34,660 nt of DNA, taken from positions 1 through 34,660 of the forward strand of contig NZ_DATBNB010000691.1 in NCBI RefSeq assembly GCF_036554565.1, read 5' to 3'. Each line of letters opens with the position of its first letter. Positions within the stretch are counted from its first letter, which is position 1. A program made the translations under genes and the position numbers. Source of the stretch: Longimicrobium sp. (lineage in GTDB: Bacteria; Gemmatimonadota; Gemmatimonadetes; Longimicrobiales; Longimicrobiaceae). The notes beneath the pieces are model-generated. The model ran no database searches and was not told the DNA's origin. It saw only the letters and a list, made by a program, of their open reading frames with translations. Of the stretch, positions 1 to 31,113 are shown in pieces.

Positions 1-1426
1 CGCCGTTCTCGTCCAGGTCCGCCGGCTCGCCGTACGCCGCGGTGATGGAGGGCCACACCTGGGTGTCGAACGTCTCGGCAATCGCCGCGTAATCCGCGGC
101 CGTCAGCCCCCCGGACGGGTTCGTGGTGTCGGCGACGATCACGATGCGCGTGCCCACGTGCACCACGCGGCCCGTGCGGTTGTCGGGGGCGGTGCAGGGC
201 TGGTCCGTCTCCACGTTCAGCGTCATCAGGCCGCCCACCACCGGCACACCGGGGGTAACGGCGCGCCGCGGCGCCGGACCGCGCGCCACGCCGCGGGCCA
301 TCAGCGGGCCCAGCTCCCGCCGCTCCGCCTCGCGAAGCCGGGTTTCCCACGCATCGTCGCGCCGAAGCCCGCCCGCCAGGCTCATCGGCGGGCCGGGAAG
401 CCGCACGGGGGTGGGCGCGCCGGCCGCCGGAACGATGCCGGAGGCGGTGAGCCCCAGCGTCATCCCTCCCGCCGTGCTGGGCGAAAGGTTCATGGGTATT
501 ACGGTGTACTCCGCCCCCCCGGTGGTGCCGGGCAGGCAGATGTCCGCGCCCCCCGGCTTGTCGGCCACGTACACGCCGCCGACCGCCAGGTTGGGACAGA
601 CGGCGATTGCCGCCGTGCCGCTACGTGCGCCACTGGTGGCGGAGATGGTCACCGTGCCGGGGCTTACGCCGGTCACGACGCCCCCCGCCGTCACCGTACC
701 GATGGCGGGGTCGGACGAGCCCCAGGTGATGGTCTGCCCCGGGATGGGCCGCCCCACCACGTCGCGCACGGTCGCCGTCAGGGGCTGCGCCGAGTCGGCC
801 ATCATCGTGTCCGCCGGCGGGCTGACGTCCACCCAGCCGTTGGGATGCGGGACCTGCGCCGCCACGTACACCGTGAAGGTGAAGGTGGCCACGGTGGGAT
901 CCACCGTGAACCGCCACGTCACCGGCTGCGACGTGGCGTTGTGCGCGAGGTTGCCGTTGTACTGGAAGTACGGCACGTCCCCGTTCAGGAAGGTCGCCGT
1001 GCCCGACGCGTTCCTCACCGACACCGCACCGGTGGCGCTGGCGGGCATCGACGCGAAGAACACCCGCACCCCGGCGGGGTCCGGCGTGGTGCCGTCCGTG
1101 GTGCCCAGCGGCTGCGGGATGAGGTTCTGCACCGTCGCGTCGAACTTGAACGTGCTGTCGATGGCGGTATACGCCGCGTTCGTGCCGGACATGAACACGA
1201 ACTCACCCTGTCCGCCCACGATCAGCCCCGGCGCCTGTCCGGTGGACGGAGTGGCGGCCCGGCAGCTCACCGTCGCCGATGCCACACGGGCCGTGCAGTC
1301 CAGCGCGGCGAGCGGGGGCGCGGCCGGGGCCTCGACCGGGGGAGCGACGGGGCCCGCGTCGGCACACGCGGACAGGGCGGCGGACAGCACGAGCGCACGG
1401 GCGCCCAGGCGGAGCTTCGGAGTCAT
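1..1426 (-). CDS. Secreted Ig-like lipoprotein, probably a surface peptidase (5' part only)
   Basis: This gene starts at the ATG at 1426 and runs out of the window, so 475 residues are visible without a stop. A signal peptide ends in a lipobox (ALSAC, Cys21), so it should be a lipoprotein of the cell envelope. Residues ~42-202 form a module with Cys44 and Cys55 that recurs in two other lipoproteins of this window. Residues ~205-276 look like a bacterial Ig-like (Big_2) domain. From ~285 on the sequence (GGVYVADKPGG, then TAADYAAIAETFDTQVWPSI near the edge) resembles the start of hyicolysin/M30-like peptidase regions known in similar Gemmatimonadota proteins. The catalytic HExxH would lie outside the window, so peptidase function is an inference. 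No strong Shine-Dalgarno is visible. Confidence 0.8.
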   Translation of the reverse strand, partial: MTPKLRLGARALVLSAALSACADAGPVAPPVEAPAAPPLAALDCTARVASATVSCRAATPSTGQAPGLIVGGQGEFVFMSGTNAAYTAIDSTFKFDATVQNLIPQPLGTTDGTTPDPAGVRVFFASMPASATGAVSVRNASGTATFLNGDVPYFQYNGNLAHNATSQPVTWRFTVDPTVATFTFTVYVAAQVPHPNGWVDVSPPADTMMADSAQPLTATVRDVVGRPIPGQTITWGSSDPAIGTVTAGGVVTGVSPGTVTISATSGARSGTAAIAVCPNLAVGGVYVADKPGGADICLPGTTGGAEYTVIPMNLSPSTAGGMTLGLTASGIVPAAGAPTPVRLPGPPMSLAGGLRRDDAWETRLREAERRELGPLMARGVARGPAPRRAVTPGVPVVGGLMTLNVETDQPCTAPDNRTGRVVHVGTRIVIVADTTNPSGGLTAADYAAIAETFDTQVWPSITAAYGEPADLDENG

Positions 1427-1570
1427 CGGCGAGGGAAAGATCGGGATTGGAGAGAGCGGCGGGGCGCCGCGGGCGTGGGTCTGCGGGGAACAAAGATGCC
1501 GGGGCGCCGGGCGCCCGTCAACGAGGCACGGTCCGCATGAAGGCGGAGCCGGGGTCTCGGTATGTCCATC

Positions 1571-1610
1571 CAAAAAAATCCGGCCCGCTCCAGAAGGTGG
1601 AGCGGGCCGG
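1571..1610 (-). terminator. Rho-independent terminator after tRNA-Leu
   Basis: A 12-bp perfect stem (1580-1591 with 1599-1610, 7-nt loop) is followed, in the minus direction, by seven T residues (1572-1578). It lies directly after the tRNA and would end both the tRNA and the upstream lipoprotein transcript. Confidence 0.9.
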
Positions 1611-1613
1611 CAG

Positions 1614-1697
1614 TGCCCGGAGTCGGACTCGAACCGACAATCCCTTGCGGGAGGCAGATTTTGAGTCTGCTGCGTATACCGATTTCGCCATCCGGGC
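1614..1697 (-). tRNA. tRNA-Leu (anticodon CAA)
   Basis: The minus strand folds into a class II tRNA. The acceptor stem is GCCCGGA with TCCGGGC and discriminator A1614. There is a D arm, an anticodon stem GCAGA/TCTGC with loop CTCAAAA (anticodon CAA, reading UUG), a long variable arm with a CCC/GGG stem, and a T arm GTCGG-TTCGAGT-CCGAC. CCA is not encoded. It starts 14 bp after the stop of the lipoprotein gene at 1711-2475, so it may be cotranscribed with it. No integrase or duplicated 3' end was seen. Confidence 0.95.
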
Positions 1698-1710
1698 GGA
1701 CGGACGAAAG

Positions 1711-2475
1711 CTAACGGATGGGATTCGAAGGATCAACCTCCGCCGGAGCCGGCGCGCCTTCCAGCAGCTGCAGCGCGTACACGGCGCGGCGCAGCGCGCG
1801 GATGCTGTCGCCCGAGGCGAGCCCGGCGCGCGCTCCCGACAGCAGCGCGCGGGCGTTCCGCTCGGCCGCGCCGGACGCGGCGCCCGCCTGCAGCCGGGCC
1901 TCGGCGCTCGCCAGCAGCCGCAGCCCCACGGCCATGGGCGACTGCTCGCGCGCGGCCAGCGTTCCCTCGCCCAGGTGGCGCACGGCGGCGGCGGTGTCGC
2001 CCGCGGCCAGGGCGGCGCGGGCCGCCTGCGCCCGGACGGCGACGGACGCCGCGGCGGCGGCCAGCTCCGGGTGGGCGCCCAGCTCCAGCCGGGCACGGGC
2101 GCGGTCCGTCCACGCCTCCAGCGCGGCCAGCGCCCCCAGCATCCGCCCCGCGTCGGGCGCGCGCGCCACCCCGGCGGCGGCCTCGCGCAGTGCCTGCGCC
2201 TCGAACGACAGCGCCTCGTCGGGCCGGCCGGCGGCGCGGGCCCGCTGCGCGCGAGCCCGAAGCGCATCCACCCCGGCGCGCTGCGCGGGGGACAGGTACG
2301 GGAGCCAGGTTTCCGCCCGCGGCAGGCCACGCGGCTCGGCGACGGCCACCCAGGCCTGGCCGCCCGCCACCTGCACGTACGAGGTGGGCGCGGTGGGCCC
2401 GTCGTCGCACGCGGACACCGCCAGGAGCGCGGATGCACAAAGCACCGCCAGCGGGCGGAAAACGCGAAGGGGCAT
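1711..2475 (-). CDS. Small Ala/Arg-rich helical lipoprotein, unknown function
   Basis: The protein has 254 residues. The start is the ATG at 2475, which gives a compact signal peptide ending in AVSAC (lipobox Cys23). A short linker follows, then about 200 residues very rich in Ala, Arg, Leu and Glu with no obvious catalytic motif. The pattern suggests an all-helical, TPR-like or coiled domain in the periplasm. A good divergent promoter (TTGACC-18-TATGTT at 2518-2547) precedes it with a leader of about 35 nt. The tRNA-Leu and a terminator lie immediately downstream. I do not recognise the family; envelope location is well supported, function is unknown. Confidence 0.8.
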   Translation of the reverse strand: MPLRVFRPLAVLCASALLAVSACDDGPTAPTSYVQVAGGQAWVAVAEPRGLPRAETWLPYLSPAQRAGVDALRARAQRARAAGRPDEALSFEAQALREAAAGVARAPDAGRMLGALAALEAWTDRARARLELGAHPELAAAAASVAVRAQAARAALAAGDTAAAVRHLGEGTLAAREQSPMAVGLRLLASAEARLQAGAASGAAERNARALLSGARAGLASGDSIRALRRAVYALQLLEGAPAPAEVDPSNPIR

Positions 2476-2517
2476 CGGGTTGCGGGCAGGAACGGGTACC
2501 GCGGGAATGGGACGACA

Positions 2518-2547
2518 AACATAGGGCGGCGGGGCGCCAGCGGTCAA
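2518..2547 (-). promoter_or_regulatory. Sigma70-type promoter of the lipoprotein gene
   Basis: Minus strand: -35 TTGACC (2547-2542), 18-bp spacer, -10 TATGTT (2523-2518). Predicted start of transcription is near 2511, 36 nt before the ATG at 2475. It is back-to-back with the tetR promoter. Confidence 0.65.
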
Positions 2548-2567
2548 GCCGCGGCCCCTCTGTACGC

Positions 2568-2597: not shown

Positions 2598-2634
2598 GAC
2601 GGACGTTCGAACACGGTTTCCCGGACACCCGCAG

Positions 2635-13045: not shown

Positions 13046-16000
13046 TCACGGCTTTCGGCAGGTGCCGTTCGCCACGGCGGTATACGTGGTCGCCAGCGTG
13101 GCGCTGCCCGAACTCCCGGGGGCGTTCTGGCCCGCGATGAACGAACCGACGTTCAGCGCGTCGTTTGCGGCCCCGCTCAGCCGCTCCAGCTGAAAGCCCG
13201 ACGTTTCCCGCTGCCGCACGCGGAACTGCGTCGCCGCGCCGACGCTGCCGGACGAGTTGCCCGCGATGTCCATGCACAGGGTAGTGGTGTTGCGCGCCTC
13301 CACGCGCGTTCCGTTCACCGAGCCCACCGGAACCGACGAGTTGTCGTCGGGAGTGCCCACCGTGTTCCCGCGAAGCGTCAGGTCCAGCCGCCCCTTCTCG
13401 GCGTCGGCGTCGTTGTCCAGGCGCGACTGCACGAGAATCCCTTCGAAGTCGGTGTTCCGCGTCGTGTTGTTGGTCACCGCCAGCACGGCGTCCACGTCGC
13501 CGCGCATGTCCACGCTGATCCCGAAGGCGTTCCGCGAGCCGGAATCCGGCGTGCCGTCACCCACCTGGTTCCCCGTGATCGTACCGCGGACACGGGAACC
13601 GTTGGTGCTGGTGGTAGACGAGAGGACGGAGACGCCGCTCCCGCGCTGCCGGACCAGCGTGTTTCCGACCAGTCCAAACGCCAGGTCGCCCGAGAGGTCG
13701 GTTGCCAGGTCCACACCCACGCCGTTGTCGCGGAACGTGCTGGTGGCGATGGATATGGACTGGTCGGCCTGGTCTCCCGACGACGCCAGGAACCCCGCCA
13801 GACGGTTTCCGCCGAAGGTGCTGCCCGAGACGACAACCATGACCTGAGCGGTGCCCGAACCCAGCACCGTGAAGCCGTTCCCGCCCGTGGGCGAGGTGCT
13901 CAGGAAGCTGCTGCCCACCACCGACAGCATGGTGAGCACGCCGGCGTCGGGAGTGAGGCGTACGTTGTCGTCGAAGCTTTCGGCTACGGTGGTGTTCGTG
14001 ATCGCGCTGCTCCCCACCAGCCGGCCAAACCGAAGCCCCGCCTCGCCCGCGGCGTCGCCGTTTCGGACCACCGTGCTGCCCTCGATGCGGAAGTCCGCTA
14101 CGTCGTTCCCGTAGACGCCGTTGCCCGCGTTCTCCCGCACGTCCATGAACGACAGGATCACGTTGCGCGCAGATTCGAGGCGCACACCGTCGCTCGTCAT
14201 CCCGCGGATGCTTCCGCCGCTTGCCGCGGCTCCGCTGCCGGTAACCTGCATGCCGTTCAACGAGCCGGTGTTGACCAGGACGATGCCGTGCGCGCCGCCC
14301 GTGGCCGAGACGCTCACGAACGACAGGCCCGCGGCGCCGATAGCGGCGTCCTGCACGTGCACGGCGGCACCACCCGTGCTGACGACGCTGTTCCCGGCAC
14401 CCGTCACCGTCACGGTGCCGCCATTCGCCGCGTAAAAGCCCGCACCCGACGTGGTGGCGATCGCCAGCCCGCCGCCGCCGAACGAAACCTTCGCGCCCCC
14501 GTTGTTGGAAAGCAGCACACCCGGGTTCGCGCCGGTGGAGAGCGACTTGCTGGCGCCCGTGAAGGCGATGCTGCCGTCGACGTTGTTCTGCACGGCGATC
14601 CCCTGCCCTGTGGAGCCGATGGTGCCGCCGAAGACCAGGGCGCCGCCAGTGCGGCCGGTAACCGACACGGCAAGCGGCCCCGCGGCCGCAACGCTGCCGC
14701 CGTAGGAGAATGATCCCGCCCCCCCCATCACGTCTACCGCCGCGGCACCCGCACCGGTGATGGCTCCGCCGACGGCCGAGAACGATCCGCCCACCCCCAC
14801 CAGGCGGATGCCCGAACCCGGACTGCCCGCTGACGAAAGCGACGTGAACGAGCCCGCCACGCTGCCGGCCGACAGGTCCAGCGCCGGGCCGCCCTGCGCC
14901 GTCACCGAGACGGCGGCGACAGTCAGCGTGCCGAAGCCGCTCCCCGCCATACCGGCGCCCGCGGCAGAAGCCACATCCAGGCCCTGCACCACGTTGTTGG
15001 CCGCCACCTGCACCGTCGTTCCCGACGCGCGGGTCACGGTGGGCGCGGCGCCGGCAGCGAGCAGGACCAGCGTCTGCCCGTTCAGCATCGCCGTCACGTC
15101 CGAGGCGACGCCCTGGCCGGTCAGCGATTGCCCGCTCTTCAGCGCGATGCCGCCGCCGTAGGCACCCGCGCCGGTACGCAGGAGGATCGTCTCGCCCGTG
15201 GCGGACGCGCCCTCCGCCCCCGACAGCGCGGTGAACGGCGAGGCGTCACGCCCGTCGCCCGCCCCCGCCGCCGCGTTGTCCACGTACCACACCCGGTACG
15301 CCGACACCATGGCGGCCGACGCACTCACCGACTCCTGGCCGTCAGTGACGGTGTAGGTAAAGCTGTCGGTCCCCGCGAACCCGGCGGCGCTCCGATAGGT
15401 GAAGCTGCCGTCGGCGTTCAGCACCACGCTTCCGCCGGCCGTCGTGGGATACGTTCCCGCCACCACGGACAGCGCATTCCCTTCGGCGTCCGTGTCGTTG
15501 GCCAGCACGCCGGGCGCGGCTACGGGTACCGTCACGTTGCCGATGGCCTGGAAGGTGTCGGGCGCCGCAACCGGCGGGGTGTTGGGGTTGAAGACGGTGA
15601 GCGTCGCGGACCCGGAGGCCGCACCCGAGGTGGCGGTGATCGTCGCCTGCCCCGTGGCCCGCCCCGTCGCTAGCCCGGAAGCGTCCACCGTGGCCACGGC
15701 CGTGGCCGAGCTGGACCAGGCTGCCGGCGCGCCGGGGATGGGGTTGCCGTGCAGGTCGGTCACCGTGGCGGTGAACTGCTGGGTGCCGCCCACCGCCACC
15801 GACGCCGTGGCCGGGCTCACCACCACACCGCCGGCGATCCCCGTCTCGATGCGGAACTTCACCGGCAGCGTCTGGCCGGCGATCACGGGAACGAACCGCG
15901 TCTGGTCGACGTCGTTCTTTTCCTTGCCGGTGCGGACCACGTCCACGTCGGCGTAGCCCAAGCGGAAGGTGCCCACGAACACCTGCACGCGGTAGAAGGC

Positions 16001-16360
16001 AGCCGGGTCCAGCGACTTGGGCGTGTTCCAGTTGGCGATGTAATGCTGCGCGGCCGCGTCCACGCGCACCGAGCCGGACCCGCTGCCGAACGAGTAGGAT
16101 GCCACCATGGGGCCGCAGGCGGCTCCGGCCAGCTGGCAGATCTCGACGCGGGGCTGCAGCGCCGCATCGAAGGTGCCGGAGTAGGGAGCGGGCGGCGCCA
16201 TTGGAGGCAGGAAATAGAAGCCGGGCACCGATCCGCCGTGGGCGCCGTCGGAGATTGCGCTCAGCGCCTCGTCCTGGGCGGTGGGCGCGGTCATGTCACC
16301 CGAACAGGCGGCGAGGGCGCACAGCAGCACCGCGCGGAAACCGTACTTGGATCGCAACAT
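13046..16360 (-). CDS. Large surface lipoprotein: Ig-like, cadherin-like and beta-helix repeats (1104 aa)
   Basis: A short signal peptide ends in LAAC (Cys19). In order follow: an N-terminal beta domain (~60-175) with the cysteine pair CQLAGAAC; a Big_2-type Ig domain (~178-258; SVAVGGTQQFTATV, GLATGRATGQATITATSG); a cadherin/VCBS-like domain (~265-355; VLANDTDAEGN, NADGSFTYRS, FTYTVTDG); a WYVDN...GDGRDASPF element that typically opens a right-handed beta-helix; and about 680 residues of short G/S/T/V/N-rich parallel beta-helix repeats. The last ~400 residues resemble the C-terminus of the 1916-aa protein at 21479-27229, as does a GASK...GGGGL...GGTVTVTGA module. It is probably anchored in the outer envelope as an adhesin or surface polymer-binding protein. 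No catalytic motif was recognised. Confidence 0.9.
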   Translation of the reverse strand: MLRSKYGFRAVLLCALAACSGDMTAPTAQDEALSAISDGAHGGSVPGFYFLPPMAPPAPYSGTFDAALQPRVEICQLAGAACGPMVASYSFGSGSGSVRVDAAAQHYIANWNTPKSLDPAAFYRVQVFVGTFRLGYADVDVVRTGKEKNDVDQTRFVPVIAGQTLPVKFRIETGIAGGVVVSPATASVAVGGTQQFTATVTDLHGNPIPGAPAAWSSSATAVATVDASGLATGRATGQATITATSGAASGSATLTVFNPNTPPVAAPDTFQAIGNVTVPVAAPGVLANDTDAEGNALSVVAGTYPTTAGGSVVLNADGSFTYRSAAGFAGTDSFTYTVTDGQESVSASAAMVSAYRVWYVDNAAAGAGDGRDASPFTALSGAEGASATGETILLRTGAGAYGGGIALKSGQSLTGQGVASDVTAMLNGQTLVLLAAGAAPTVTRASGTTVQVAANNVVQGLDVASAAGAGMAGSGFGTLTVAAVSVTAQGGPALDLSAGSVAGSFTSLSSAGSPGSGIRLVGVGGSFSAVGGAITGAGAAAVDVMGGAGSFSYGGSVAAAGPLAVSVTGRTGGALVFGGTIGSTGQGIAVQNNVDGSIAFTGASKSLSTGANPGVLLSNNGGAKVSFGGGGLAIATTSGAGFYAANGGTVTVTGAGNSVVSTGGAAVHVQDAAIGAAGLSFVSVSATGGAHGIVLVNTGSLNGMQVTGSGAAASGGSIRGMTSDGVRLESARNVILSFMDVRENAGNGVYGNDVADFRIEGSTVVRNGDAAGEAGLRFGRLVGSSAITNTTVAESFDDNVRLTPDAGVLTMLSVVGSSFLSTSPTGGNGFTVLGSGTAQVMVVVSGSTFGGNRLAGFLASSGDQADQSISIATSTFRDNGVGVDLATDLSGDLAFGLVGNTLVRQRGSGVSVLSSTTSTNGSRVRGTITGNQVGDGTPDSGSRNAFGISVDMRGDVDAVLAVTNNTTRNTDFEGILVQSRLDNDADAEKGRLDLTLRGNTVGTPDDNSSVPVGSVNGTRVEARNTTTLCMDIAGNSSGSVGAATQFRVRQRETSGFQLERLSGAANDALNVGSFIAGQNAPGSSGSATLATTYTAVANGTCRKP

Positions 16361-16858: not shown

Positions 16859-16986
16859 GAAGGCTTGCCTGCCGCCACATCTACCGCGCGTTGCCGCCAT
16901 CCCCGGCGAATCCGCTGTCAGAGAGTAGGCCCCAATCCGGTTCCTCCGGACCGGTGCACCTCCCCCCACCTCCCCCAGCCATCGCC

Positions 16987-17709
16987 ATGATCATCCATCC
17001 TGGAGATCACGAACGCAGCGCGGAAGAAATCCGCGCCGCGAACCAGATTACGCGCCGCGAGGTGCTGCGCCGAGTCGCGTTCGGCACGGGCGCCCTTCTC
17101 GTCCCGGGGCTGCTCGCCGCGTGCGTCGACGAGAACTTCAACCCGCTGGGCACCGCCAAGGAAGACGACGAGGGCCAACGGGACGTCGGCCCCGCGAATG
17201 GCAGCGAGGCGTTCCTGTCGGAGATCAAGGTGGTTTCGTTCAACTTCCCGCCCAAGGGATGGGCGCTCTGCAACGGCCAGCTCCTGCCCATCAACCAGAA
17301 CCAGGCGCTGTTCGCCTTGCTGGGCACCACCTACGGCGGGAACGGGCAGACCAATTTTGCGCTTCCCAACCTGCGGGGCCGGGTGCCCATTCACAGGGGC
17401 CACGGACATACCCTGGGCGAAGCGGCGGGAAGCACGAGCGTAACCGTCAACATCCAGCAGATGCCGCAGCATCTGCACGTGCTGCAGGCGTCGGCACTCG
17501 ACGGAAACCTCCCGGTGCCGTCCGCTCCCCAGCCGAACCTCCTGGCCCGCGAAGTGGACCAGGTGTACGGACCCGCGGCCAACCTCAGCCCGCTCGCCGC
17601 CGGCACCGTGACCAGCGTCGGCGGAAGCCAGCCGCACAACAACATGATGCCCTACCTGGCGCTGAACTTCATCATCGCGCTCCAGGGCATCTTCCCGTCG
17701 CACAACTGA
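16987..17709 (+). CDS. Phage-tail-collar (MdpB-like) protein with a Tat lipoprotein leader
   Basis: The protein has 240 residues from the ATG at 16987. The N-terminus has a twin-arginine motif (TRREVLRR), a hydrophobic stretch and a lipobox (LLAAC), so it should be exported folded by Tat and lipidated. After a ~30-residue acidic linker comes a tail-collar domain: SEIKVVSFNFPPKGWALCNG, PINQNQALFALLGTTYGGNG and FALPNLRGRVPIH. The C-terminal region is HNNMMPYLALNFIIALQGIF. The collar part is nearly the same as the leaderless protein at 20807-21319, differing mainly in the His/Gln-rich middle. Family members include the microcystin-related MdpB; their biochemical role is unknown. The next gene lies ~80 bp downstream. 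Confidence 0.92.
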   Translation: MIIHPGDHERSAEEIRAANQITRREVLRRVAFGTGALLVPGLLAACVDENFNPLGTAKEDDEGQRDVGPANGSEAFLSEIKVVSFNFPPKGWALCNGQLLPINQNQALFALLGTTYGGNGQTNFALPNLRGRVPIHRGHGHTLGEAAGSTSVTVNIQQMPQHLHVLQASALDGNLPVPSAPQPNLLAREVDQVYGPAANLSPLAAGTVTSVGGSQPHNNMMPYLALNFIIALQGIFPSHN

Positions 17710-20268: not shown

Positions 20269-20793
20269 TCAGGTTTGGCTCGGGAAAATCCCGAACAGCG
20301 AGATGATGAAGTTCAGGCAGAGGAACGGCTGCGTGTTCTCGTGCGGCTGGCTGCCCCCCACGGGCGTGATGGCGTTCGCGGCCATGGCTACCGTCGGATC
20401 GTCCTCGACGTACATGTCCTTGCCCGCCACCCGCGACTGGGCCACGGTGTTGCCCCCGGGGTCGGCCGAGCTCGCCAGCGTGGTGGAGCCCAGCAGCGGG
20501 TGCGTGTGGTTGGGGATCTGCTGCACGGACAGGGTTTCCTGCTCCGTTCCCGCCATCTCGCCGATCTGGTACGTGGTGCCGTCCGGCCCCGTGCCCATGT
20601 GCATGGGCACGCGGCTCGCCAGGTTGGGCAGGTTGAACGTTTCCTCCCCGTCCCCGCCGTACGTGGTGCCGATCAGCTGAAACAGTACTTCGTTCTCCGA
20701 GATGGGCAGCGGCTGGCCCTCGCAGAACATCCATCCCACCGGGGGAAAGTTTCCGGCGAACATCCGGATCTCCCCGACGTAAGGCTGCGCCAT
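20269..20793 (-). CDS. Phage-tail-collar (MdpB-like) protein, second gene of the operon
   Basis: The 174-residue collar protein has GEIRMFAGNFPPVGWMFCEG, PISENEVLFQLIGTTYGGDG and FNLPNLASRVPMHMG at the N-terminus. A divergent middle has NHTHPLLGST and an acidic MYVEDDP. It ends HENTQPFLCLNFIISLFGIF. It is the least similar of the four collar proteins. There is no export signal. A GGAG lies ~9 nt before the ATG at 20793; it starts 13 bp after the first gene of the operon. Confidence 0.92.
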   Translation of the reverse strand: MAQPYVGEIRMFAGNFPPVGWMFCEGQPLPISENEVLFQLIGTTYGGDGEETFNLPNLASRVPMHMGTGPDGTTYQIGEMAGTEQETLSVQQIPNHTHPLLGSTTLASSADPGGNTVAQSRVAGKDMYVEDDPTVAMAANAITPVGGSQPHENTQPFLCLNFIISLFGIFPSQT

Positions 20794-20806: not shown

Positions 20807-21319
20807 TCAGTTGCGGGAGGGGAAGATGCCCTGGAGCGCGATGATGAAGTTCAACGTCAGGTAGGGCATCATGTTGTTGTGGGGCTGGCTTCCGCCCACG
20901 CTGGTGACCGTGCTGGCCGCCACCGGCGAAAGGTTGGCGGCGGGCCCGTACACCTGGTCTACCTCGCGCGCCAGCAGGTTTCCCTGGTTGTTGGCGAAGG
21001 GCACCGGCAGGTTTCCGTCGCTGGCCGAGGCATTCAGGAAATGGGAATGCGTCGGCAGCTGCTGAATCGTAACGGTGACGCCGGTGCTCCCCGCGGCTTC
21101 CCCGAGGATATGCCCGTTCCCCATGTGAATGGGCAAGCGGCCGCGCAGGTTGGGAAGTGCGAAGGTGGTCTGCCCGTTCCCGCCGTAGGTGGTGCCCAGA
21201 AGGGCGAACAGCGCCTGGTTCTGGTTGATGGGCAGGAACTGCCCGTTGCACAGCGCCCATCCCTTGGGTGGGAAGTTGAACGAGACGACCTTGATCTCGC
21301 TCAAGAACGGTTCCGACAT
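20807..21319 (-). CDS. Phage-tail-collar (MdpB-like) protein, first gene of the operon
   Basis: The 170-residue protein has SEIKVVSFNFPPKGWALCNG, PINQNQALFALLGTTYGGNG, FALPNLRGRLPIHMG and the C-terminal HNNMMPYLTLNFIIALQGIF. It is a close paralogue of the mature part of 16987-17709, matching at most positions, including a shared LLAREVDQVYGPAANLSP segment. It has no Tat or Sec leader. AGGAG lies 5 nt before the ATG at 21319. The gene starts the three-gene collar operon just downstream of the terminator region of the 1916-aa lipoprotein. Confidence 0.93.
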   Translation of the reverse strand: MSEPFLSEIKVVSFNFPPKGWALCNGQFLPINQNQALFALLGTTYGGNGQTTFALPNLRGRLPIHMGNGHILGEAAGSTGVTVTIQQLPTHSHFLNASASDGNLPVPFANNQGNLLAREVDQVYGPAANLSPVAASTVTSVGGSQPHNNMMPYLTLNFIIALQGIFPSRN

Positions 21320-21416
21320 AGATGCTCCTTTCAGAGCTTGCCAGGTGGGACTGCGGAACACCCCGGCGGGAGGTGCCGGGGCACAAGGGCCAAAACCGCA
21401 CCCTCCGGTGCCGGAC

Positions 21417-21478: not shown

Positions 21479-24400
21479 CTAGAAGGCCGCCGTCTGGCAG
21501 GTGGCGCTGGTGTAGTTGACCACGGTTCCGGTCCCCGCGGTCACGACGGCTGACGTCGCGGTGTTGCGGGGAGAATCCAGGTAGTCGTTGATGCTCGTCG
21601 AGTTCGTCCCCACCCCGGCGAACGCGTCCAGTTGGAACACGGCCGAGTTCGCCTGGCGCGTGCGGATCCCCGCCGCACCCATGGAGCCGGTCGAGGTGTT
21701 CGCCGCCATGTTCAGGCAGGTCGTACGCGAGTCGCGCGAGGTGACGCGCACCCCTTCGAAGGGAGTGAACGGGTCTTCCGCCGGATTGAACGTGTTCGAC
21801 GACACGATGAAGTCGCTCCGCCCCGTTCCCAGGCGGTTCTCGATAATCATCGGGTACATCAGGGTATTCTGCACCAGGTTGTTCTGGATGGTGATGGCCG
21901 CCTGCGCGCCACCCCGGATGTCGACGCCGATCCCGTTTCCGTTGGTGGTGCCGCTGCCCGCCGTACCAGTTCCGATCACGTTGTTGGAAATGTTTCCGTT
22001 CGCCTTGGTCGTTCCCGTCGACGCGGCGTCGGAGATCACGTTCACCGCGGCGGTGCGGTGGTTCACCAGCGTGTCGTGCTGGAACGTGAAGGTGCCGTTG
22101 CCGCCACCGATGCCGTGGTCCAGCCCGATGTTGTTGCCGCTGAACTTCGTGAACTTCACCGAAACGTTGTACGTGGCCGTATTCGCGAACGAGGTCAGGA
22201 ATCCGGCCGTCTGGTTGCCCGACACCACCGAACTGTCGACCACTGCGGTGACCGACGCGTCGTTGATCGCCACCACCGCGAAGCCGTTGCCCCCCGTGCC
22301 CACCGGGTTGGGACCCAGCGTGCTCTTCACTACCCGCAGGGTGCCCTGCGCGCCGCCGTTGGCCTCCCAGCGAACGCCGTCACCGTTGGTGCCGCTCACC
22401 GTGGTGCTGCGGATGGTGTTGCTGCCCAGCAGTGTGTTGAAGAACAGCCCCGACTCGTTGGTGCCCGTTGGATGGTCGGCGTCGTTGTTGGTCACCTGCG
22501 ACCCGGTCAGCGTGAAGTTCGTCAGCTGGTCGCCGAAAACGCCGCTGCCGTTATTGGCGGTGACCAGCATCGATGCGAGCGAAACGTTGGTCGCGGTCGC
22601 CAAGTGAATGCCGTTTCCGCTCATCGACTGGATGGTGCCACCCGAAGAGGCCGTTCCCGTGCCGAGTACGGCGAAGCTGCCGTTGGTTCCGGCCAGCCGG
22701 ATGCCGTTCGTGCTGCTGGTCGCGGTAACGCTCGTGAGCGAGATCGCCAGCGGCTGCGTGCCGGCGGAGGGCGCAATGTTCACCGCGGCGCCGCTCGCCG
22801 CGTTGAGGGTGCCGCTGCTGATGGACAGCGTTCCCGATCCCGCGGCCGACGTCATCGCCAGCGCCGTGGACGATTGCGTGAAGATGCTCACAGCGCCCAG
22901 GCTGATGTTGCCGGACCCCATCTGCAGGGCGAGGGGCGTGAAGGTGTAGCGTGCGCCGCTGTTACCCAGCGTCAGGCCGGCGAAAGTGACACTGCCCGCG
23001 TTGGTCACCATCCGCACACCCCCGGAGGTGTTCGGCGCCGAAACGGTAGCAAACGTGTACGACCCGCCCGTGGTGTTCGAGATGTCCACCGCCTGCGTGG
23101 CCGTCGAGGCCGAGGTCAGCGTGGGAGCCGTCCACGTAGCCACTGCGTTGCCGCCCGACACGTTCAGCGCGTCGCCGTTGGCCGAGCCGGTCATCGTGCC
23201 CCCGCCGACCGTGTAGGTACCGCCGACCGAAGCCAGCGACACTGCGTGCGTCGCGGCGCCCGTGCCCGAGGCGTTGATGCTGGCGATGGTTCCGTTCAGC
23301 GTACCGGTGTTCAGGTTCAGCGCGCCGGGGCCGCCGGTGGCGGATACCGACGTGCTGCCGATCGTCAGCGTTCCAAAGGTGGTGCCGGTGATCACTGCGC
23401 CAGTGCCCGCGGTGCGGCTGAGCGTCATCCCGGAGAGATTCACCCCGGTGGTGAGGCTCGACAGGTTGGCCAGTGACACGCCCGCACCGGTGGTGCCCTG
23501 GATGGTTCCGCCGTTCACCTGCACACCCGGGCCGGCGGTCAGGTTCGACAGCAGGATGCCGTTCACCGCGCCGTTGGCCGACACGCTGGCCAGGTTCACG
23601 CCGCTGGCGCCGGTCGCCACCGACGACAGTGAAAGCGCCGTTCCCGACGTCGTCGCGATCGTGTTGTTGGCTCCCGTCACCTGCACCGTGCCGCCGCCGC
23701 TGGCGGTGAAGCCCGCGCCGGTGGTGGTGGTGATGCCCAGATTGCCGCCACTGAAGACGAGGGTCGAGCCCGTGTTGTTCGTCGCAGTGACCGCGGGGTT
23801 AACCGTGGTGTTCAGCACCTTGCTGGCGCCGCTGAAGGTGATGGTGCCGCCGGTGTTGTTCTGCACCAGGATGCCGTTGGTCCCGCTGATGGCGCCCGAC
23901 GCGGTCACCGACCCGCCGCTGACGCCCTCCACGTGCACCGCAAGCCCCGTGGCGCTCGACGTGACGCTGCCGGCGTACGACACGTTCGTGCTGGCGCTGC
24001 CGTTCTGCACCCGCAGGGCGATGCCCGACGCGTTGGCGATGCTCGCCCCGGCGCCGAAGCTGATGGCGCCGTTCGAGCCGCTCACCACGTCCACGCCGGC
24101 GTCGCCGCCGTTGAGCGTGGTGGTGCCGTTGAAGGCCACCGTGCCGTCCGCGTTGCTGAGCGAGATGCCCGTTCCGGCGGTCGCCGAGAGCGTACCCGTG
24201 TTGAAGGTGACGCTGCCGGCGGGCTGCTCGCCGATGTCCACCAGCAGCCCCGCGTTGCCCTTGGTCAGGTTGCCGCTGTAGGTCACCGTCGGCGAGCTGC
24301 CGTACACGGTGAAGGCCGAGCCGGTGGGGTTGGTGACGCTCGCGCCCGTGCCGAAGGTGAAGCTGCCCGTCGACGAGTTGGTGATGTCGATGGCCGCGTC

Positions 24401-27229
24401 ACCGCCGTTGAGGGTCGTGGTGCCGTTGAAGGCGTACGTGCCCACCGCGTTGTTGAACTGCAGGCCGGTGCCGTTGGTGGCGCCCACCGTGCCCGTGTTG
24501 AAGGTCAGCGCGCCGTTGTGGCTGCCGCTTACCGCCACCAGCGGGGCGTTGTTCGCCTGCGAGATGGAGCCCGAGAGGGTGGCGCTCACCGAGCCGCCGG
24601 CCACCGCGAACGCCGTCGAAGCGGCGCCCGTGATGCTGCCCGCGGCGGCGGTGAAGGAACCGCCCGTGCTGGTCAGGATCACGCCGTTGCTGGCGCTGCT
24701 GGCGGAGCCCAGCGAGCTGAACCCGCCGTTCAGGGTGCCGGTGGCCAGGCTGAGCGCCGGTCCGCCGGTGGTGGCCACCGAAACGCCCGTCACCCGCAGC
24801 GTCCCGAAGCCGGAGCCGAAGATGCCCGCGGTACCGGCGTTGCCGCCGCCCACCGCCATGAACTTCAGGCTCACGCTGTCGGCGCCCGTCATGCTCGACA
24901 GGCTCACCGCGTGGCTGGTGGTGTTCTGAACCGTGCCGCCCGAGCCGCCGTTGCTCCCGTCGCCGGTCACCTGCAGCCCCGCGCCGGTGACGCTGGCCAG
25001 GGCGATGCCGTTCGCGGCGCCGTTGGCCGACACCGACAGGAAGTTCACGCCGCTGGCGCCGGTGCCCACGCCATTCAGGGTGACGGCGGTGCCGGTGGTG
25101 CTCTCGACGGTGTTGTTGGCGCCGGTCACGCTCACCGTGCCGCCGCCGCTGGCGGTGAAGCCCGCGCCCGAGGTGGTGGTCACGTCCAGGCCGCCGCCGC
25201 CGAACGTCACCGCCGCGCCCGTGTTGCTGGTCAGCGACACGCCCGCGTTGGAGCCGGTGGTGATGGTCTTCGACGCGCCCGTGAACGAGATGGTGCCGCC
25301 CGTGTTGCTCCCCACGCTCACGCCCGAACCGGTGAGGCTCAGCGCGCCGGAGAAGCCGACCGTGCCGCCCGAGATGCCGCTCACCGAGATGCCGCCGGCG
25401 CTGTCGGTGACGTCGCCGGAAACGGCGAGCGCGCCGCCGGTGCGGCCCGAGATGGAAGCCGCCAGCCCCGACCCGTTGGTGATGGAACCGCCGTAGGTGA
25501 TGTCGGCCGAGCCGCCGGAGACGTGGAACGCCGTGCCCACCGAGCTGGCGATGGCGCCGCCGGTGGCCGCCAGGGAGCCGGTGACATCCGTCAGGCTCAA
25601 CCCCGTCGTGGTGCTGCCCGTGGAGGAAAGCACGTCGAAGATGGCGTCGAGCGCGCCGGTGCTCAGCAGCAGCGCCGGGCCCGCCGGGTTCACGCCCGTC
25701 TCGCGCACGAACAGCGTTCCGAAGCTGGTGCCCGAGATGGCTGCGCCGGCCGCCGCCGTGATGCCCACGCCGCGGATGACGTTGTTGGTGCCCAGGGTGA
25801 TGGTGGCGCCCGGTCCCGTGTTGGTCAGCGCGGGGGCCGCGCCGCCAGCCGCCAGGACGGTGATGGCCGCGCCATTGTACGTGCCGCGCGAGACGGCCTG
25901 GCTGGTGCCCCCGCCGATGATGGCCTGGCCGGCTTCCAGCGTCACCGCGCCGTTGAGCTGCTGCACGCCGTTGGCGAACACGATGATGGTATCGCCCGCC
26001 ACGGCCGAGTCCTGCGCCGCGGCCAGCGTTCCGAAGGGCGAGGCATCGCGCCCGTCACCGCCGGAGCCCTGCTTCACGAACCAGAACGGGCTGTTCTCCA
26101 CCCGTACCACGGCCTTGCCCGGCAGGGTGCGCGCGCCGTCGGTGACGGTGTAGCGAATGGTGTCGAGGCCGGCGTAGCCGGGCTTGCTCAGGTAGGTGAA
26201 GCTGCCGTTCGCCGCGATCGTCGCGGTGCCGCCCCGGTCGGTGCTCACCGTGCCGGCGCTCACCGTCAGCTTCTCGTCGGTTCCGTCGTTGGCCACCATC
26301 CCGTGGGCGCTGTCCACCGGCATGGTGACGTTGGAAACGGCGCTGATGCTGTCCAGGTTCAGAACCGGCGCGTTGTTCACGGTCACCAGGATCGAGTCCC
26401 TGCGCACCGAGTTCGCCTGGCTCTCGGCCTTGATCCAGGCCGTGCCCTGTGCAACCCCCTGGATCTGCGCCGTGGAGTCGGAGGTCTCGGTCACCGTGAC
26501 CACGCCCGTGTTGCTGGACGACCAGTTCACGTTGTCGGCGAGCCCGCGGCCCACCACGTCGAACACGCTGTCGGCGAGCACGGCCGTCTCGCCGACGTTC
26601 AGCAGCGCCGAGTTGGGCGTGATGTCCACCCACCCCTGCGGGTACTTCACCCGGGCCGAGACGTAGACCTTGAAGTTGAACTGCGGAGCCCCGTTGAGCG
26701 CGAGCTTCCACTGCTTGGCCTCGGAAACCTCGTTGGGCTCCAGGGCGCCGGCGTACTGGTAGTACGGCTTGTTCCCCGAAATGAAGACCTCGGAGCCGGA
26801 CGCCCCCGCCACGACGACAGGGCCCCCGCCGCCGACGGCGTTGGGGCCCGCGTGGAAGAAGACGCGCACGCCCTCCGCGTTCGCCGATCCGTCGTCGTTC
26901 ACACCGAGCGCCTGCGGAAGCAGGTTCTGCACGGTGGCATTGAAGACGAAGGTGTCGGCTACGACCGCCATCCCCGTGGAGACCAGCTTCACGAACATGT
27001 CCTGTCCGCCCACGATCAGCCCCGAGGCCGCGCCCGTGCCGGGCTGCGCCGAGGTGCACGTGACGGAGCGCGAGCTCACGGTGACGGTGCAGTCCAGTGC
27101 CTGGAGGACGTCGGAGGGCTCGGGAATCGGCGGCTTGCGGCCGTCAGGACCCAGCGGGTCGCCCGCGTCGCTGCAGGATACGGCGGCCAGAAGGCCCGCC
27201 AGGAACAGAGCGCGTCTACGCAAGGACAT
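21479..27229 (-). CDS. Giant surface lipoprotein with beta-helix repeats (1916 aa)
   Basis: The signal peptide ends in AAVSC (Cys19). Domains in order: the shared N-terminal module (~45-202, Cys47/Cys58, ending in KYPQGWVDITP); an Ig/Big_2-like domain (~205-285); a cadherin-like domain (~287-378; MVANDGTDEKL, NGSFTYLSKPGY, IRYTVTDG); then WFVKQGSGGDGRDASPFGTL (~384) opening ~1500 residues of parallel beta-helix repeats. Recurrent modules such as TITFSGASK, AGFTASGGGTV, VTGANNT and FNGTTTLNGGDA occur several times. The last ~400 residues, with TRQANSAVFQLDAF, match the C-terminus of 13046-16360. The start at the ATG at 27229 has GGAG 9 nt upstream. It is probably an exposed adhesin or fibre. 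Base composition is like its neighbours, without signs of recent transfer. Confidence 0.93.
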   Translation of the reverse strand: MSLRRRALFLAGLLAAVSCSDAGDPLGPDGRKPPIPEPSDVLQALDCTVTVSSRSVTCTSAQPGTGAASGLIVGGQDMFVKLVSTGMAVVADTFVFNATVQNLLPQALGVNDDGSANAEGVRVFFHAGPNAVGGGGPVVVAGASGSEVFISGNKPYYQYAGALEPNEVSEAKQWKLALNGAPQFNFKVYVSARVKYPQGWVDITPNSALLNVGETAVLADSVFDVVGRGLADNVNWSSSNTGVVTVTETSDSTAQIQGVAQGTAWIKAESQANSVRRDSILVTVNNAPVLNLDSISAVSNVTMPVDSAHGMVANDGTDEKLTVSAGTVSTDRGGTATIAANGSFTYLSKPGYAGLDTIRYTVTDGARTLPGKAVVRVENSPFWFVKQGSGGDGRDASPFGTLAAAQDSAVAGDTIIVFANGVQQLNGAVTLEAGQAIIGGGTSQAVSRGTYNGAAITVLAAGGAAPALTNTGPGATITLGTNNVIRGVGITAAAGAAISGTSFGTLFVRETGVNPAGPALLLSTGALDAIFDVLSSTGSTTTGLSLTDVTGSLAATGGAIASSVGTAFHVSGGSADITYGGSITNGSGLAASISGRTGGALAVSGDVTDSAGGISVSGISGGTVGFSGALSLTGSGVSVGSNTGGTISFTGASKTITTGSNAGVSLTSNTGAAVTFGGGGLDVTTTSGAGFTASGGGTVSVTGANNTVESTTGTAVTLNGVGTGASGVNFLSVSANGAANGIALASVTGAGLQVTGDGSNGGSGGTVQNTTSHAVSLSSMTGADSVSLKFMAVGGGNAGTAGIFGSGFGTLRVTGVSVATTGGPALSLATGTLNGGFSSLGSASSASNGVILTSTGGSFTAAAGSITGAASTAFAVAGGSVSATLSGSISQANNAPLVAVSGSHNGALTFNTGTVGATNGTGLQFNNAVGTYAFNGTTTLNGGDAAIDITNSSTGSFTFGTGASVTNPTGSAFTVYGSSPTVTYSGNLTKGNAGLLVDIGEQPAGSVTFNTGTLSATAGTGISLSNADGTVAFNGTTTLNGGDAGVDVVSGSNGAISFGAGASIANASGIALRVQNGSASTNVSYAGSVTSSATGLAVHVEGVSGGSVTASGAISGTNGILVQNNTGGTITFSGASKVLNTTVNPAVTATNNTGSTLVFSGGNLGITTTTGAGFTASGGGTVQVTGANNTIATTSGTALSLSSVATGASGVNLASVSANGAVNGILLSNLTAGPGVQVNGGTIQGTTGAGVSLANLSSLTTGVNLSGMTLSRTAGTGAVITGTTFGTLTIGSTSVSATGGPGALNLNTGTLNGTIASINASGTGAATHAVSLASVGGTYTVGGGTMTGSANGDALNVSGGNAVATWTAPTLTSASTATQAVDISNTTGGSYTFATVSAPNTSGGVRMVTNAGSVTFAGLTLGNSGARYTFTPLALQMGSGNISLGAVSIFTQSSTALAMTSAAGSGTLSISSGTLNAASGAAVNIAPSAGTQPLAISLTSVTATSSTNGIRLAGTNGSFAVLGTGTASSGGTIQSMSGNGIHLATATNVSLASMLVTANNGSGVFGDQLTNFTLTGSQVTNNDADHPTGTNESGLFFNTLLGSNTIRSTTVSGTNGDGVRWEANGGAQGTLRVVKSTLGPNPVGTGGNGFAVVAINDASVTAVVDSSVVSGNQTAGFLTSFANTATYNVSVKFTKFSGNNIGLDHGIGGGNGTFTFQHDTLVNHRTAAVNVISDAASTGTTKANGNISNNVIGTGTAGSGTTNGNGIGVDIRGGAQAAITIQNNLVQNTLMYPMIIENRLGTGRSDFIVSSNTFNPAEDPFTPFEGVRVTSRDSRTTCLNMAANTSTGSMGAAGIRTRQANSAVFQLDAFAGVGTNSTSINDYLDSPRNTATSAVVTAGTGTVVNYTSATCQTAAF

Positions 27230-27550: not shown

Positions 27551-27557
27551 GTGCGGG

Positions 27558-28796: not shown

Positions 28797-28928
28797 GCGT
28801 TCTTGGAGCGACGGGTGATCCGGAGGCAGAGCCATCCTGCCGAAACCGCCCCCGCCCATGCACGAACCTCGCCCGCGTGCGGGTGCTCGCATCCGATGCG
28901 GACATGCGGCCCATCGTGAGGTGGGCGG

Positions 28929-28967
28929 AAAAGAAGAACCGCCCCGGCATCACTGCCGGGGCGGTTC
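28929..28967 (-). terminator. Rho-independent terminator of rplU-rpmA
   Basis: A perfect 14-bp stem with a 4-nt loop (28936-28949 with 28954-28967) is followed in the minus direction by TTCTTTT (28935-28929). It lies 30 bp after the rpmA stop. Confidence 0.9.
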
Positions 28968-28996
28968 CCGTATCCTGCGTGCGGCGAAGCCAGGCG

Positions 28997-29296
28997 TCAG
29001 TCGCCGGCCTCGAGCTCCACGACGGCTTCCACGGGCTCCGCCAGGAAGGGGAGCACCGCGACCGACTTGCGCTTCTTGTCCTTGCGGACGAACTGCACCT
29101 GGCCGTCGACGAGCGCGAACAGCGTGTCGTCGCTGCCGATGCCCACGTTGGCGCCCGGATGGAAGCGGGTGCCGCGCTGGCGCACCAGGATGTTGCCGGC
29201 GAGAACCTTCTCGCCACCGAAGCGCTTGACCCCCAGCCGCTGCGCGTTCGAGTCGCGCCCGTTGCGGGTCGAGCCGCCGCCCTTCTTATGTGCCAT
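28997..29296 (-). CDS. rpmA: 50S ribosomal protein L27
   Basis: The 99-residue protein begins [20 protein letters not shown], the universal L27 N-terminus that reaches the peptidyl-transferase centre. The core is [20 protein letters not shown], then [20 protein letters not shown]. The mature N-terminus is encoded directly, without the cleaved extension of Firmicutes L27. AGGAGAG lies ~7 nt upstream. A basic DKKRKSV stretch and an acidic tail end the protein. It follows rplU by 15 bp; the two genes are an operon. No obgE follows, unlike in many bacteria; a terminator and alaC come next. Confidence 0.98.
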
Positions 29297-29311
29297 GGCT
29301 GCTCTCTCCTG

Positions 29312-29626
29312 TTAGCCGAGGTTGATCTCGTTGACGCGAACCTCAGTGAACTTCTGCCGGTGCCCCTGCTTGCGCCGGTAGTTCTTGCGCCGCTTGTGCT
29401 TGAAGATGATGATCTTCTCGCCCTTGCCGTGCCGTACGACCTCGGCCGTCACCGACGCACCGCTCACGCCCGGCGCGCCGATCTTGATCGAGTCGCCGTC
29501 GGCGCCCAGGAGCACGTCGTCGAAGCGAAGGCTTTCGCCCGGCTCGATGGCGACGGAGGGAATGCGAAGCGTCTTGCCCGGCTCGGCACGGAACTGCTTG
29601 CCGCCGGTGCGGATGATGGCGTACAT
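29312..29626 (-). CDS. rplU: 50S ribosomal protein L21
   Basis: The 104-residue protein has the L21 signature: [20 protein letters not shown] at the N-terminus and the basic [19 protein letters not shown] near the C-terminus, which contacts 23S rRNA. The ATG at 29626 matches family starts. A good promoter at 29687-29715 gives a ~54-nt leader. It is the first gene of rplU-rpmA. Confidence 0.98.
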
Positions 29627-29686
29627 GTCGTTGGAACCCCGTTGCACGGACTTGGCCCGTTCTCCAAAAAACAACACAAGACGAGC

Positions 29687-29715
29687 AATATCGCCCCAAA
29701 CACCCCGTGTGTCAA
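29687..29715 (-). promoter_or_regulatory. Promoter of rplU-rpmA
   Basis: Minus strand: exact -35 TTGACA (29715-29710), 17-bp spacer, -10 GATATT (29692-29687). The leader contains a T6 run (TTGTTTTTTGGAG) that stands out in this GC-rich DNA. Confidence 0.75.
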
Positions 29716-29751
29716 GGCGTGCCGGGCCGGGACTTGCCGGCCCGCGGCGGG

Positions 29752-31113
29752 TCAGAAGGGCACCGCGAAAGGCCGCAGCACCGGCGTGGCGCTGGCGCCC
29801 CCGCTCAGGATCAGCCCGCCCGCGCCCCCGGCGGGGTTCACCCAGCGCAGCTCGTTGCCGGTGGCGGTGTAGGCCAGGTACACGATGCGGCCGTCCGGCG
29901 TCCAGGTGCCCGACGCGTCGCTTCCCGCGCGGTCGGTCAGGCGGGTGACGGCGCCGCCGGCCAGCGTCAGCACGAACAGCTCGGCGTTCCCCGGCGCGTT
30001 CGACGAGTAGGAAAGGAACTTCCCGTCGGGGCTGAACGCGGGGGTCACCTCGGCGCTTTCGCCCCCGCGCAGCAGCGAGGGCATGGCCCCGGGCGCCGCC
30101 AGGTCGAAGACGTCGGCGGTGCCGTTGGGCGTTCCCACCAGGGCCAGGCGGTCCGCCCCGGGAAACCAGGCCGGCGACGCCTCGGGCGCGCCGCCGAACC
30201 CGAAGCTGCTCGAGGCGGCCCGCGTGGCGCCGGTGCCGTTGGCCGCGGCCACGAACACCTTGGAGACGCCGCTGGCGTCGTAGGAGTAGGCCAGGCGCGT
30301 TCCCTCGCGGTTCAGGGCGGGCTCGGTCTCGAATGCGGCCGTGGTGGTCAGCCGCGTTTCGGCCCCGCCCACCAGCGGCATGGAGTACAGCTCGGCGTTG
30401 CCGTTGCGGAAGCTGGTGAACACCACCGTTCCGCCGCCGGAGGTGGGGTTCATGTCCTCGGCGGCGTGGGTCGTCATCCGCACCAGGTCGCTGCCGTCGA
30501 GGGCTACCCGGTACAGGTCGCGGTTGCCGGCCACCACGCGGTCGAACAGCACCACGGGCATCTTCGCGGCCTGCACGTACACCCGGAAGGTGAACGCCGT
30601 CACCTTCTTCGCCACGGTGAACTCCCAGCGCTGCGACGCGGTCTCGTTCAGGGCGAGCACCTGGCCGTACTGGAAGAACGCCTGCTGCTTGCCTTCCACC
30701 GTGCGCGCCTGGCCGTTGCGCGCGTCCACCGCCCCGGTGCCCGCCGAGGCGTCGGGACCCGCGGCCAGGTACACCTGGATGCCCTCGGCGGGGGAGCCGC
30801 CGGTGGTGCCCAGCTTGAAGACGAGCAGGTTCTTCACCGACGCGTCGAAGCCGAAGACTCCGCCGGACGAGGCGACGTTGGCGGCGGCAAACTGCACGTG
30901 GGCCGCCGCGCCCGACACCGGGGAGCAGGAAACGCTCGCGCCCGCCACGTTGGCGGTGCAGTCCAGCGCCGCCAGGGCGTCGGAGGGAACGGCGAAGGTG
31001 GGCTTGGCGGGCACCTCGGGATCGGGGCCGACGCCGTCCTTGCAGGCCGCGGCCAGCAGCAGGGCCACGGCCGCGCCGAACGGCGAAAGGCGGCGGAAGA
31101 ACGTGAGTGCCAC
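29752..31113 (-). CDS. Lipoprotein with novel N-terminal module and TolB-like beta-propeller
   Basis: The protein has 453 residues from the GTG at 31113, which has a GCGAGG Shine-Dalgarno 6 nt upstream; longer starts would give an unlikely 33-residue extension. The lipobox is LAAAC (Cys24). Residues ~50-195 are the module shared with 1-1426 and 21479-27229 (Cys52/Cys63, FFQYGQVLALN, W in QRWEFTV, FTFRVYVQA). Residues ~205-450 contain PD40/TolB-type propeller blades: NRDLYRVALDGSDLVRMT, NAELYSMPLVGGAETRLT, PAFSPDGKFLSYSS, AELFVLTLAGGAVTRLTD and WTPDGRIVYLAY. Such propellers bind peptides, proteins or sugars. The gene lies between rng and rplU, a pair that is adjacent in many bacteria. Confidence 0.9.
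   Translation of the reverse strand: MALTFFRRLSPFGAAVALLLAAACKDGVGPDPEVPAKPTFAVPSDALAALDCTANVAGASVSCSPVSGAAAHVQFAAANVASSGGVFGFDASVKNLLVFKLGTTGGSPAEGIQVYLAAGPDASAGTGAVDARNGQARTVEGKQQAFFQYGQVLALNETASQRWEFTVAKKVTAFTFRVYVQAAKMPVVLFDRVVAGNRDLYRVALDGSDLVRMTTHAAEDMNPTSGGGTVVFTSFRNGNAELYSMPLVGGAETRLTTTAAFETEPALNREGTRLAYSYDASGVSKVFVAAANGTGATRAASSSFGFGGAPEASPAWFPGADRLALVGTPNGTADVFDLAAPGAMPSLLRGGESAEVTPAFSPDGKFLSYSSNAPGNAELFVLTLAGGAVTRLTDRAGSDASGTWTPDGRIVYLAYTATGNELRWVNPAGGAGGLILSGGASATPVLRPFAVPF

What the first reader, a model, noticed from the sequence alone, without database searches (positions are those of the whole stretch)
1..31113. Undescribed ~150-residue N-terminal module shared by three unrelated lipoproteins
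The proteins at 1-1426, 21479-27229 and 29752-31113 all carry, right after the lipobox linker, a module beginning ALDCT and containing a second Cys exactly 11 residues later (Cys44/55, 47/58, 52/63). Shared landmarks are F-x-F-(D/N)-A-x-V-x-NL, a G(V/I)xV(F/Y) strand, (Y/F)xQYxGxL-like, a Trp strand, and FxF-x-VYV. Two copies end in GWVD. The module is followed by quite different domains: Ig plus a likely peptidase, Ig plus cadherin plus beta-helix, and a TolB-like propeller. This looks like a common envelope-sorting or surface-docking domain with a disulfide. I know no name for it.
Basis: partly seen in the sequence, partly recalled or inferred. Interest (0 to 1): 0.8.

Follow-up and report, generated by a model that had tools for sequence, protein, structure and literature searches.

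The report
Undescribed N-terminal module of surface lipoproteins
Three otherwise unrelated lipoproteins in this Gemmatimonadota genome do start with the same undescribed, disulfide-bearing beta-sandwich domain, which some relatives carry in up to 24 copies in front of very different outer parts, so it is most likely a standard docking or stalk piece for proteins displayed on the cell surface.

Summary
The three segments are homologous (pairwise BLASTP E 2e-47, 5e-24, 3e-16). Three more copies lie elsewhere in the genome, and 24 lie in one congener. No Pfam, NCBIfam, PHROG or PDB sequence family covers the module. AlphaFold2 gives a confident beta-sandwich (pLDDT 93, pTM 0.85) for the most divergent window copy and the same strand order for a second. 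Its nearest solved folds, all weak, are CBM2/CBM3-type sandwiches. The Cys pair lies across the first hairpin: 79 of 86 copies have both, and it is lost together in a side clade. Found hits are confined to Gemmatimonadota, patchily. Passengers include Big_2, LTD, PD40, RCC1, nuclease and GH44 domains. 91 of 98 copies follow a lipobox; three follow a signal peptide plus Dockerin_1 instead, so the module goes with surface display but is not the anchor. New here: 76 of 91 module lipoproteins carry Asp at +3, against 8 of 71 other lipoproteins of one congener (p=2e-21). SusD homologues share acidic +2/+3 residues. A short C-x-D export signal, not the module, is therefore the better candidate for sorting. 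This is a real new domain family of a known general kind; its function is inferred.

The parts
1313..1426 (-). Protein 1: signal peptide, lipobox (LSAC), CADAG (+3 Asp) and Pro/Ala-rich linker
   Evidence: translation; lipobox analysis
827..1312 (-). Protein 1: N-terminal module (Cys44/Cys55, ends GWVD)
   Evidence: BLASTP and profile matches
608..832 (-). Protein 1 passenger: Big_2 Ig-like domain; the rest runs off the contig end
   Evidence: Pfam 1.5e-10
27107..27229 (-). Protein 2: signal peptide, lipobox (AVSC), CSDAG (+3 Asp) and linker
   Evidence: translation
26624..27106 (-). Protein 2: N-terminal module (Cys47/Cys58, ends GWVD); AF2 pLDDT 77.7 with six sequences
21479..26623 (-). Protein 2 passenger: Ig-like segment, Big_9/cadherin-like (26129-26377), long Ser/Gly/Thr-rich repetitive region (beta-helix type, by its similarity to window:13046-16360)
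   Evidence: Pfam; similarity to window:13046-16360
30976..31113 (-). Protein 3: signal peptide, lipobox (AAAC), CKDGV (+3 Asp) and linker
   Evidence: translation
30550..30975 (-). Protein 3: N-terminal module (Cys52/Cys63; lacks a roughly 13-residue loop); AF2 pLDDT 93.4, pTM 0.85
29755..30549 (-). Protein 3 passenger: PD40/TolB-like beta-propeller
   Evidence: Pfam PD40 1.3e-15, TIGR02800 partial match below cut-off
13046..16360 (-). Fourth lipoprotein (CSGD): passenger homologous to that of protein 2 but with a different, module-free N-terminal domain (contrast case)

Best explanation
The module is a disulfide-stapled beta-sandwich that forms the membrane-proximal first domain of outer-membrane surface lipoproteins. 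Inferred steps: the precursor is lipidated at the lipobox Cys; a short signal right after it (C-[S/T/A/G]-D) selects it for the outer leaflet, as the lipoprotein export signal does in Bacteroidota; after a Pro/Ala-rich tether of about 20-25 residues the module folds on the outside and holds varied passengers (Ig stacks, propellers, lamin-tail domains, nucleases, glycoside hydrolases) off the membrane, probably by contacting a common envelope component. Shown here: homology, predicted fold, Cys pairing pattern, position, copy number, passenger diversity and +3 Asp enrichment. Inferred: surface location, the export role of C-x-D, and docking.
For: Homology and copy number: 6 copies in this genome, up to 24 in a congener. 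Position: 91 of 98 copies behind a lipobox, most with a 17-30-residue Pro/Ala-rich linker. Fold: pLDDT 93.4, pTM 0.85, ten strands; the same strand order in an independent run on another copy. Cys pair in 79 of 86, 3 with neither at the aligned columns. Passengers are almost all extracellular-type domains, and some recombine with the module: at least 27 label changes against a minimum of 10 and a shuffled mean of 57. Three copies use Dockerin_1 in place of a lipobox. +3 Asp 76/91 against 8/71; SusD lipoproteins of the same group have Asp at +2 in 14/25 and at +3 in 12/25. The known Bacteroidota signals are also acidic: SDDDD, SDDFE, K-(D/E)2 (PMC5080379).
Against: No experiment localises any of these proteins. 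The +3 Asp enrichment is not phylogenetically independent, because signal and module may be inherited together, and the background set comes from one genome by a simple regex with a few false positives. The module sequences usually carry one acidic residue, often followed by Arg, not the two that C. canimorsus needs. Passenger classes are clustered on the module tree, so much of the spread is whole-gene duplication.
Confidence: 0.5

Rival explanations
1. The module is a carbohydrate-binding module of a CBM2/CBM3-like fold that holds the lipoproteins to extracellular polysaccharide (own capsule or plant/fungal glycans).
For: Foldseek against PDB repeatedly returns CBM2 chitin/cellulose-binding domains (6qfs, 2rtt, 3ndy), a GH20 N-terminal domain and CBM3 for both models, and a Chlorella virus chitinase in the viral library. 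A genuine CBM2 occupies the same slot in a CSDV lipoprotein of a family member, followed by a chitinase-like region. Two passengers are GH44. hhalign finds the expected register with p 0.006 against 0.14-0.65 for shuffled or reversed profiles.
Against: No Foldseek hit at E <= 1e-3 and query TM at most 0.49; hhalign probability only 6%; none of 79 members listed CBM_2 in the Pfam scan at E <= 0.5; the CBM2 Trp positions are not conserved, the only near-invariant Trp being in the penultimate strand. Most passengers are not carbohydrate enzymes.
Confidence: 0.25
2. The module itself is the envelope-sorting signal: a receptor recognises it and exports or retains the lipoprotein.
For: It follows the lipobox in 91 of 98 copies and precedes very different passengers.
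Against: Module-less lipoproteins with surface-type passengers exist, including the window's own module-free paralogue of protein 2 and SusD homologues. Dockerin-bearing copies keep the module without a lipid anchor. Most Gemmatimonadota have no detected copy. A short +3 Asp signal tracks the set better.
Confidence: 0.12
3. The module is only an inert Ig-like spacer, conserved for folding, with no binding partner.
For: Beta-sandwich fold; Big_2/Big_9 spacers commonly follow it; several near-invariant residues fit a buried or turn role.
Against: Conservation is stronger than expected for a spacer (Asn 85/86, Trp 83/86, Cys 81/86, Tyr 81/86), the position is nearly always first, and no strong second copy was seen within one protein.
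Confidence: 0.25
4. The lipoproteins stay at the inner membrane: Asp near the lipid anchor is a Lol-avoidance signal, and the module works in the periplasm.
For: In E. coli, Asp at +2 (helped by +3) retains lipoproteins at the inner membrane (established knowledge, not tested here).
Against: SusD homologues, outer-membrane proteins by family, carry the same acidic +2/+3 residues in these genomes. Passengers such as Ig arrays and GH44 make sense outside.
Confidence: 0.08

Closest known systems
CBM2 (Pfam PF00553) and CBM3-type beta-sandwiches
   Same: Best recurrent structural neighbours of both models; similar order of landmarks (F-x-x-x-V-x-N strand, hydrophobic strand plus Pro, V-x-V-x-N, final F-x-F strand)
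   Different: No significant sequence, profile or Foldseek E-value support; CBM2 Trp positions absent; extra N-terminal hairpin with its own Cys pair
NCBIfam 'choice-of-anchor' domains
   Same: Same logic: a domain next to alternative anchoring devices (here lipobox or dockerin) with varied passengers
   Different: Only sporadic weak one-member matches (choice_anch_V 0.075, CoaZ repeat 0.0061); not a member of any of them
Bacteroidota lipoprotein export signal (LES)
   Same: Acidic residue(s) right after the lipidated Cys, polar residue at +2, associated with SusD
   Different: One Asp at +3 usually followed by Arg/Gln/Gly, instead of two or more acidic residues; different phylum; export not tested
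Big_2 / Big_9 / TIG Ig-like surface domains
   Same: All-beta domains of extracellular lipoproteins, often directly downstream
   Different: Different sequence family; the module sits before them and has its own conserved features

Membership tests
CBM2 (PF00553) | Recognisable by the family HMM | tested here: not met
   79 members scanned against Pfam, no CBM_2 match listed at E <= 0.5
CBM2 (PF00553) | Profile-profile homology | tested here: inconclusive
   hhalign probability 6.4%, p 0.0057, better than shuffled and reversed controls
CBM2 (PF00553) | Beta-sandwich fold of this type | tested here: inconclusive
   CBM2 chains among top Foldseek hits but E >= 3e-3 and TM <= 0.61
CBM2 (PF00553) | Conserved Trp on the binding face | tested here: not met
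   Single near-invariant Trp, in the penultimate strand, not at the CBM2 positions
Any Pfam, NCBIfam or PHROG family | Match above curated cut-off, or recurrent matches among members | tested here: not met
   only sporadic weak hits (CFSR in 4 of 79 at best E 0.09, the rest in one member each)
NCBIfam choice-of-anchor domains | HMM match | tested here: not met
   Best 0.075 in one of 79 members for choice_anch_V; CoaZ repeat 0.0061 in one member
Bacterial lipoprotein | Lipobox with hydrophobic segment | tested here: met
   All three window proteins; 91 of 98 copies
Bacteroidota LES (K-(D/E)2, SDDDD, SDDFE) | Two or more acidic residues at +3 to +6 | tested here: not met
   Usually one acidic residue, at +3
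Bacteroidota LES | Drives surface exposure | not testable with these tools
   Needs a localisation experiment

The most novel reading that the evidence does not exclude
Gemmatimonadota export many lipoproteins to the cell surface through a C-x-Asp signal of their own, and a single undescribed beta-sandwich module serves as a universal socket that docks these passengers to one shared envelope structure. That would be a surface-display system outside Bacteroidota.
Probability: 0.2. Interest if true: 0.7.

Novelty: new member of a known kind. Interest (0 to 1): 0.45.

Why it matters
It adds an unnamed domain family that labels a large part of the surface-type lipoproteins of some poorly cultured Gemmatimonadota, and it would let annotators recognise them. 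The +3 Asp pattern shared with SusD gives a directly testable hypothesis for how lipoproteins reach the surface in a phylum where no paper in the searched library mentions a lipoprotein export signal.

Tried and rejected
Chance similarity: rejected by BLASTP and profile E-values. Known family: Pfam, NCBIfam, PHROG and PDB sequence searches negative. 'Peptidase' passenger of protein 1: no Pfam support in full-length homologues. A divergent copy of the module in the fourth window lipoprotein: its N-terminal region has about the right size but does not match and looks different. Plasmid spread: no plasmid match. Phyla outside Gemmatimonadota: a genome-collection scan with two peptide patterns found six loci, all Gemmatimonadota, but its sensitivity is low; an E. 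coli locus could not be used as a centre or target for a genome search. Alignments A1 and A2 were too diverse for that scan. A viral fold search added nothing beyond the CBM2-like trend. Whole-genome download was not available. Literature searches found no description of this module.

Full report
Observation. The three minus-strand proteins were translated. Counting from starts at 1426, 27229 and 31113, the Cys pairs are 44/55, 47/58 and 52/63, as stated. The segments align over their whole length (BLASTP E 2e-47, 3e-16, 5e-24). A profile of the three plus three further copies finds exactly six copies in the 5.36-Mb genome: three here, two close together on contig 195 (passengers LTD, and LTD plus an Ig-like part plus what looks like a DNA/RNA endonuclease) and one on contig 637.

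Family. Of 395 genomes sampled across the phylum, 34 have a match; only nine candidates per genome were scored, so this is a lower bound. A deeper search of 61 relatives gives 24 copies in one congener and 12-15 in several others, but none in many close relatives. The named records found in a separate scan of 84,980 species genomes are all Gemmatimonadota; that scan relies on two exact peptide patterns and is insensitive. Ninety-eight copies were collected. None of six library searches gives a name, and no solved structure matches by sequence.

Fold and cysteines. With a 79-row alignment, AlphaFold2 models the most divergent window copy (protein 3) at pLDDT 93.4, pTM 0.85, ten strands and no significant helix. 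Protein 2's module, with six sequences, gave the same strand order at pLDDT 77.7. Protein 1's module was not modelled separately, and no superposition could be made because coordinates are not exposed. Cys6 and Cys17 lie in register across the first hairpin. Both are present in 79 of 86 aligned copies. In four of the other seven the pair appears only displaced, as reading the sequences shows, and in a side clade (for example L112, L114) both are gone. This is the pattern expected of a disulfide. Near-invariant residues also include an Asn (85/86), a Trp (83/86), a Tyr (81/86) and a G-x-x-Q motif (80/86 each).

Structural neighbours. Foldseek gives no hit at E <= 1e-3. The recurrent top hits for both models are CBM2 chitin/cellulose-binding domains, a GH20 N-terminal domain, CBM3, white spot virus VP37 and AP2-mu domains. 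Profile comparison with CBM2 is at the noise limit, but better than shuffled and reversed controls and in a sensible register. A distant common Ig-like ancestry is possible; membership in CBM2 is not supported.

Passengers and anchors. Pfam tallies over 94 passengers: Big_2 in 27, LTD in 14, RCC1, PD40 and Big_9 in 5 each, Endonuclease_NS in 3, TIG in 3, GH44 in 2, CARDB in 2. On the module tree the passenger classes need 27 changes (shuffled mean 57, minimum 10): mostly whole-gene duplication, with some exchange. The window contains a telling contrast: protein 13046-16360 has the same Big_9 plus beta-helix passenger as protein 2 (about 40% identity) but a different N-terminal domain. Ninety-one of 98 copies follow a lipobox with a linker of typically 17-30 residues. 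Three (L055, L064, L093) instead have a signal peptide and a Dockerin_1 domain (E 1e-10 to 2e-12) before the module. The module is therefore tied to surface-type proteins but not to one anchor.

Sorting signal. The position after the lipobox is striking: Asp at +3 in 76 of 91 (Glu in 6), with low conservation on either side. In about 1.2 Mb of one congener, 8 of 71 other predicted lipoproteins have it (Fisher p = 2e-21). Among those 8 are two SusD family proteins, a TIG protein and an amidase with a Golvesin_C domain. A dedicated look at 25 SusD homologues from relatives gives Asp at +2 in 14 and at +3 in 12. Bacteroidota export signals are also acidic and near the Cys (PMC5080379). The caveats are shared descent of signal and module, a small single-genome background and a regex-based prediction that lets some non-lipoproteins in. 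Three lipobox calls were corrected by eye. With these limits, a C-x-D export signal is a better candidate for sorting than the module.

Mechanism. The best-supported picture is a lipidated surface protein whose first folded, disulfide-stapled domain holds or docks the passenger at the outer membrane. Position, conservation and diversity are shown; surface location, docking and the signal's role are inferred. A glycan-binding role and an inert spacer role remain live.

Verdict. It is a new member of the broad class of surface-lipoprotein beta-sandwich modules. It is of moderate interest by itself, higher if the export signal proves real.

Noticed in passing
window 13046-16360 (-): Fourth surface-type lipoprotein with the same passenger as protein 2 but a different, unnamed N-terminal domain (ANW...YRVQVFVG...LGYADV...LPVKFRIE), apparently a second swappable module.
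   Followed up: partly
window 16861-17709 (+), 20269-20793 (-), 20807-21361 (-): Three Phage Tail Collar domain genes lie near the 3' end of protein 2's gene; the first has what looks like a twin-arginine lipoprotein signal.
   Followed up: partly
window 28997-33047: Protein 3's gene lies between a ribonuclease E/G-like gene and what look like ribosomal protein L21 and L27 genes, normally a tight conserved cluster (identified by reading the translations).
   Followed up: no
L049 (G032:C10:36500-47500): Five tandem lipoproteins with module plus lamin-tail domain, a recent local expansion.
   Followed up: partly
L055, L064, L093: Gemmatimonadota proteins with signal peptide, Dockerin_1, the module and then Ig domains: dockerins at the N terminus instead of a lipid anchor.
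   Followed up: partly
L191:487-2052 (-): A CSDV lipoprotein with a genuine CBM2 in the module's slot followed by what looks like a chitinase domain.
   Followed up: partly
L192-L221: SusD homologues are common in this group (24 of 26 genomes searched) and carry acidic +2/+3 residues after the lipid Cys.
   Followed up: yes
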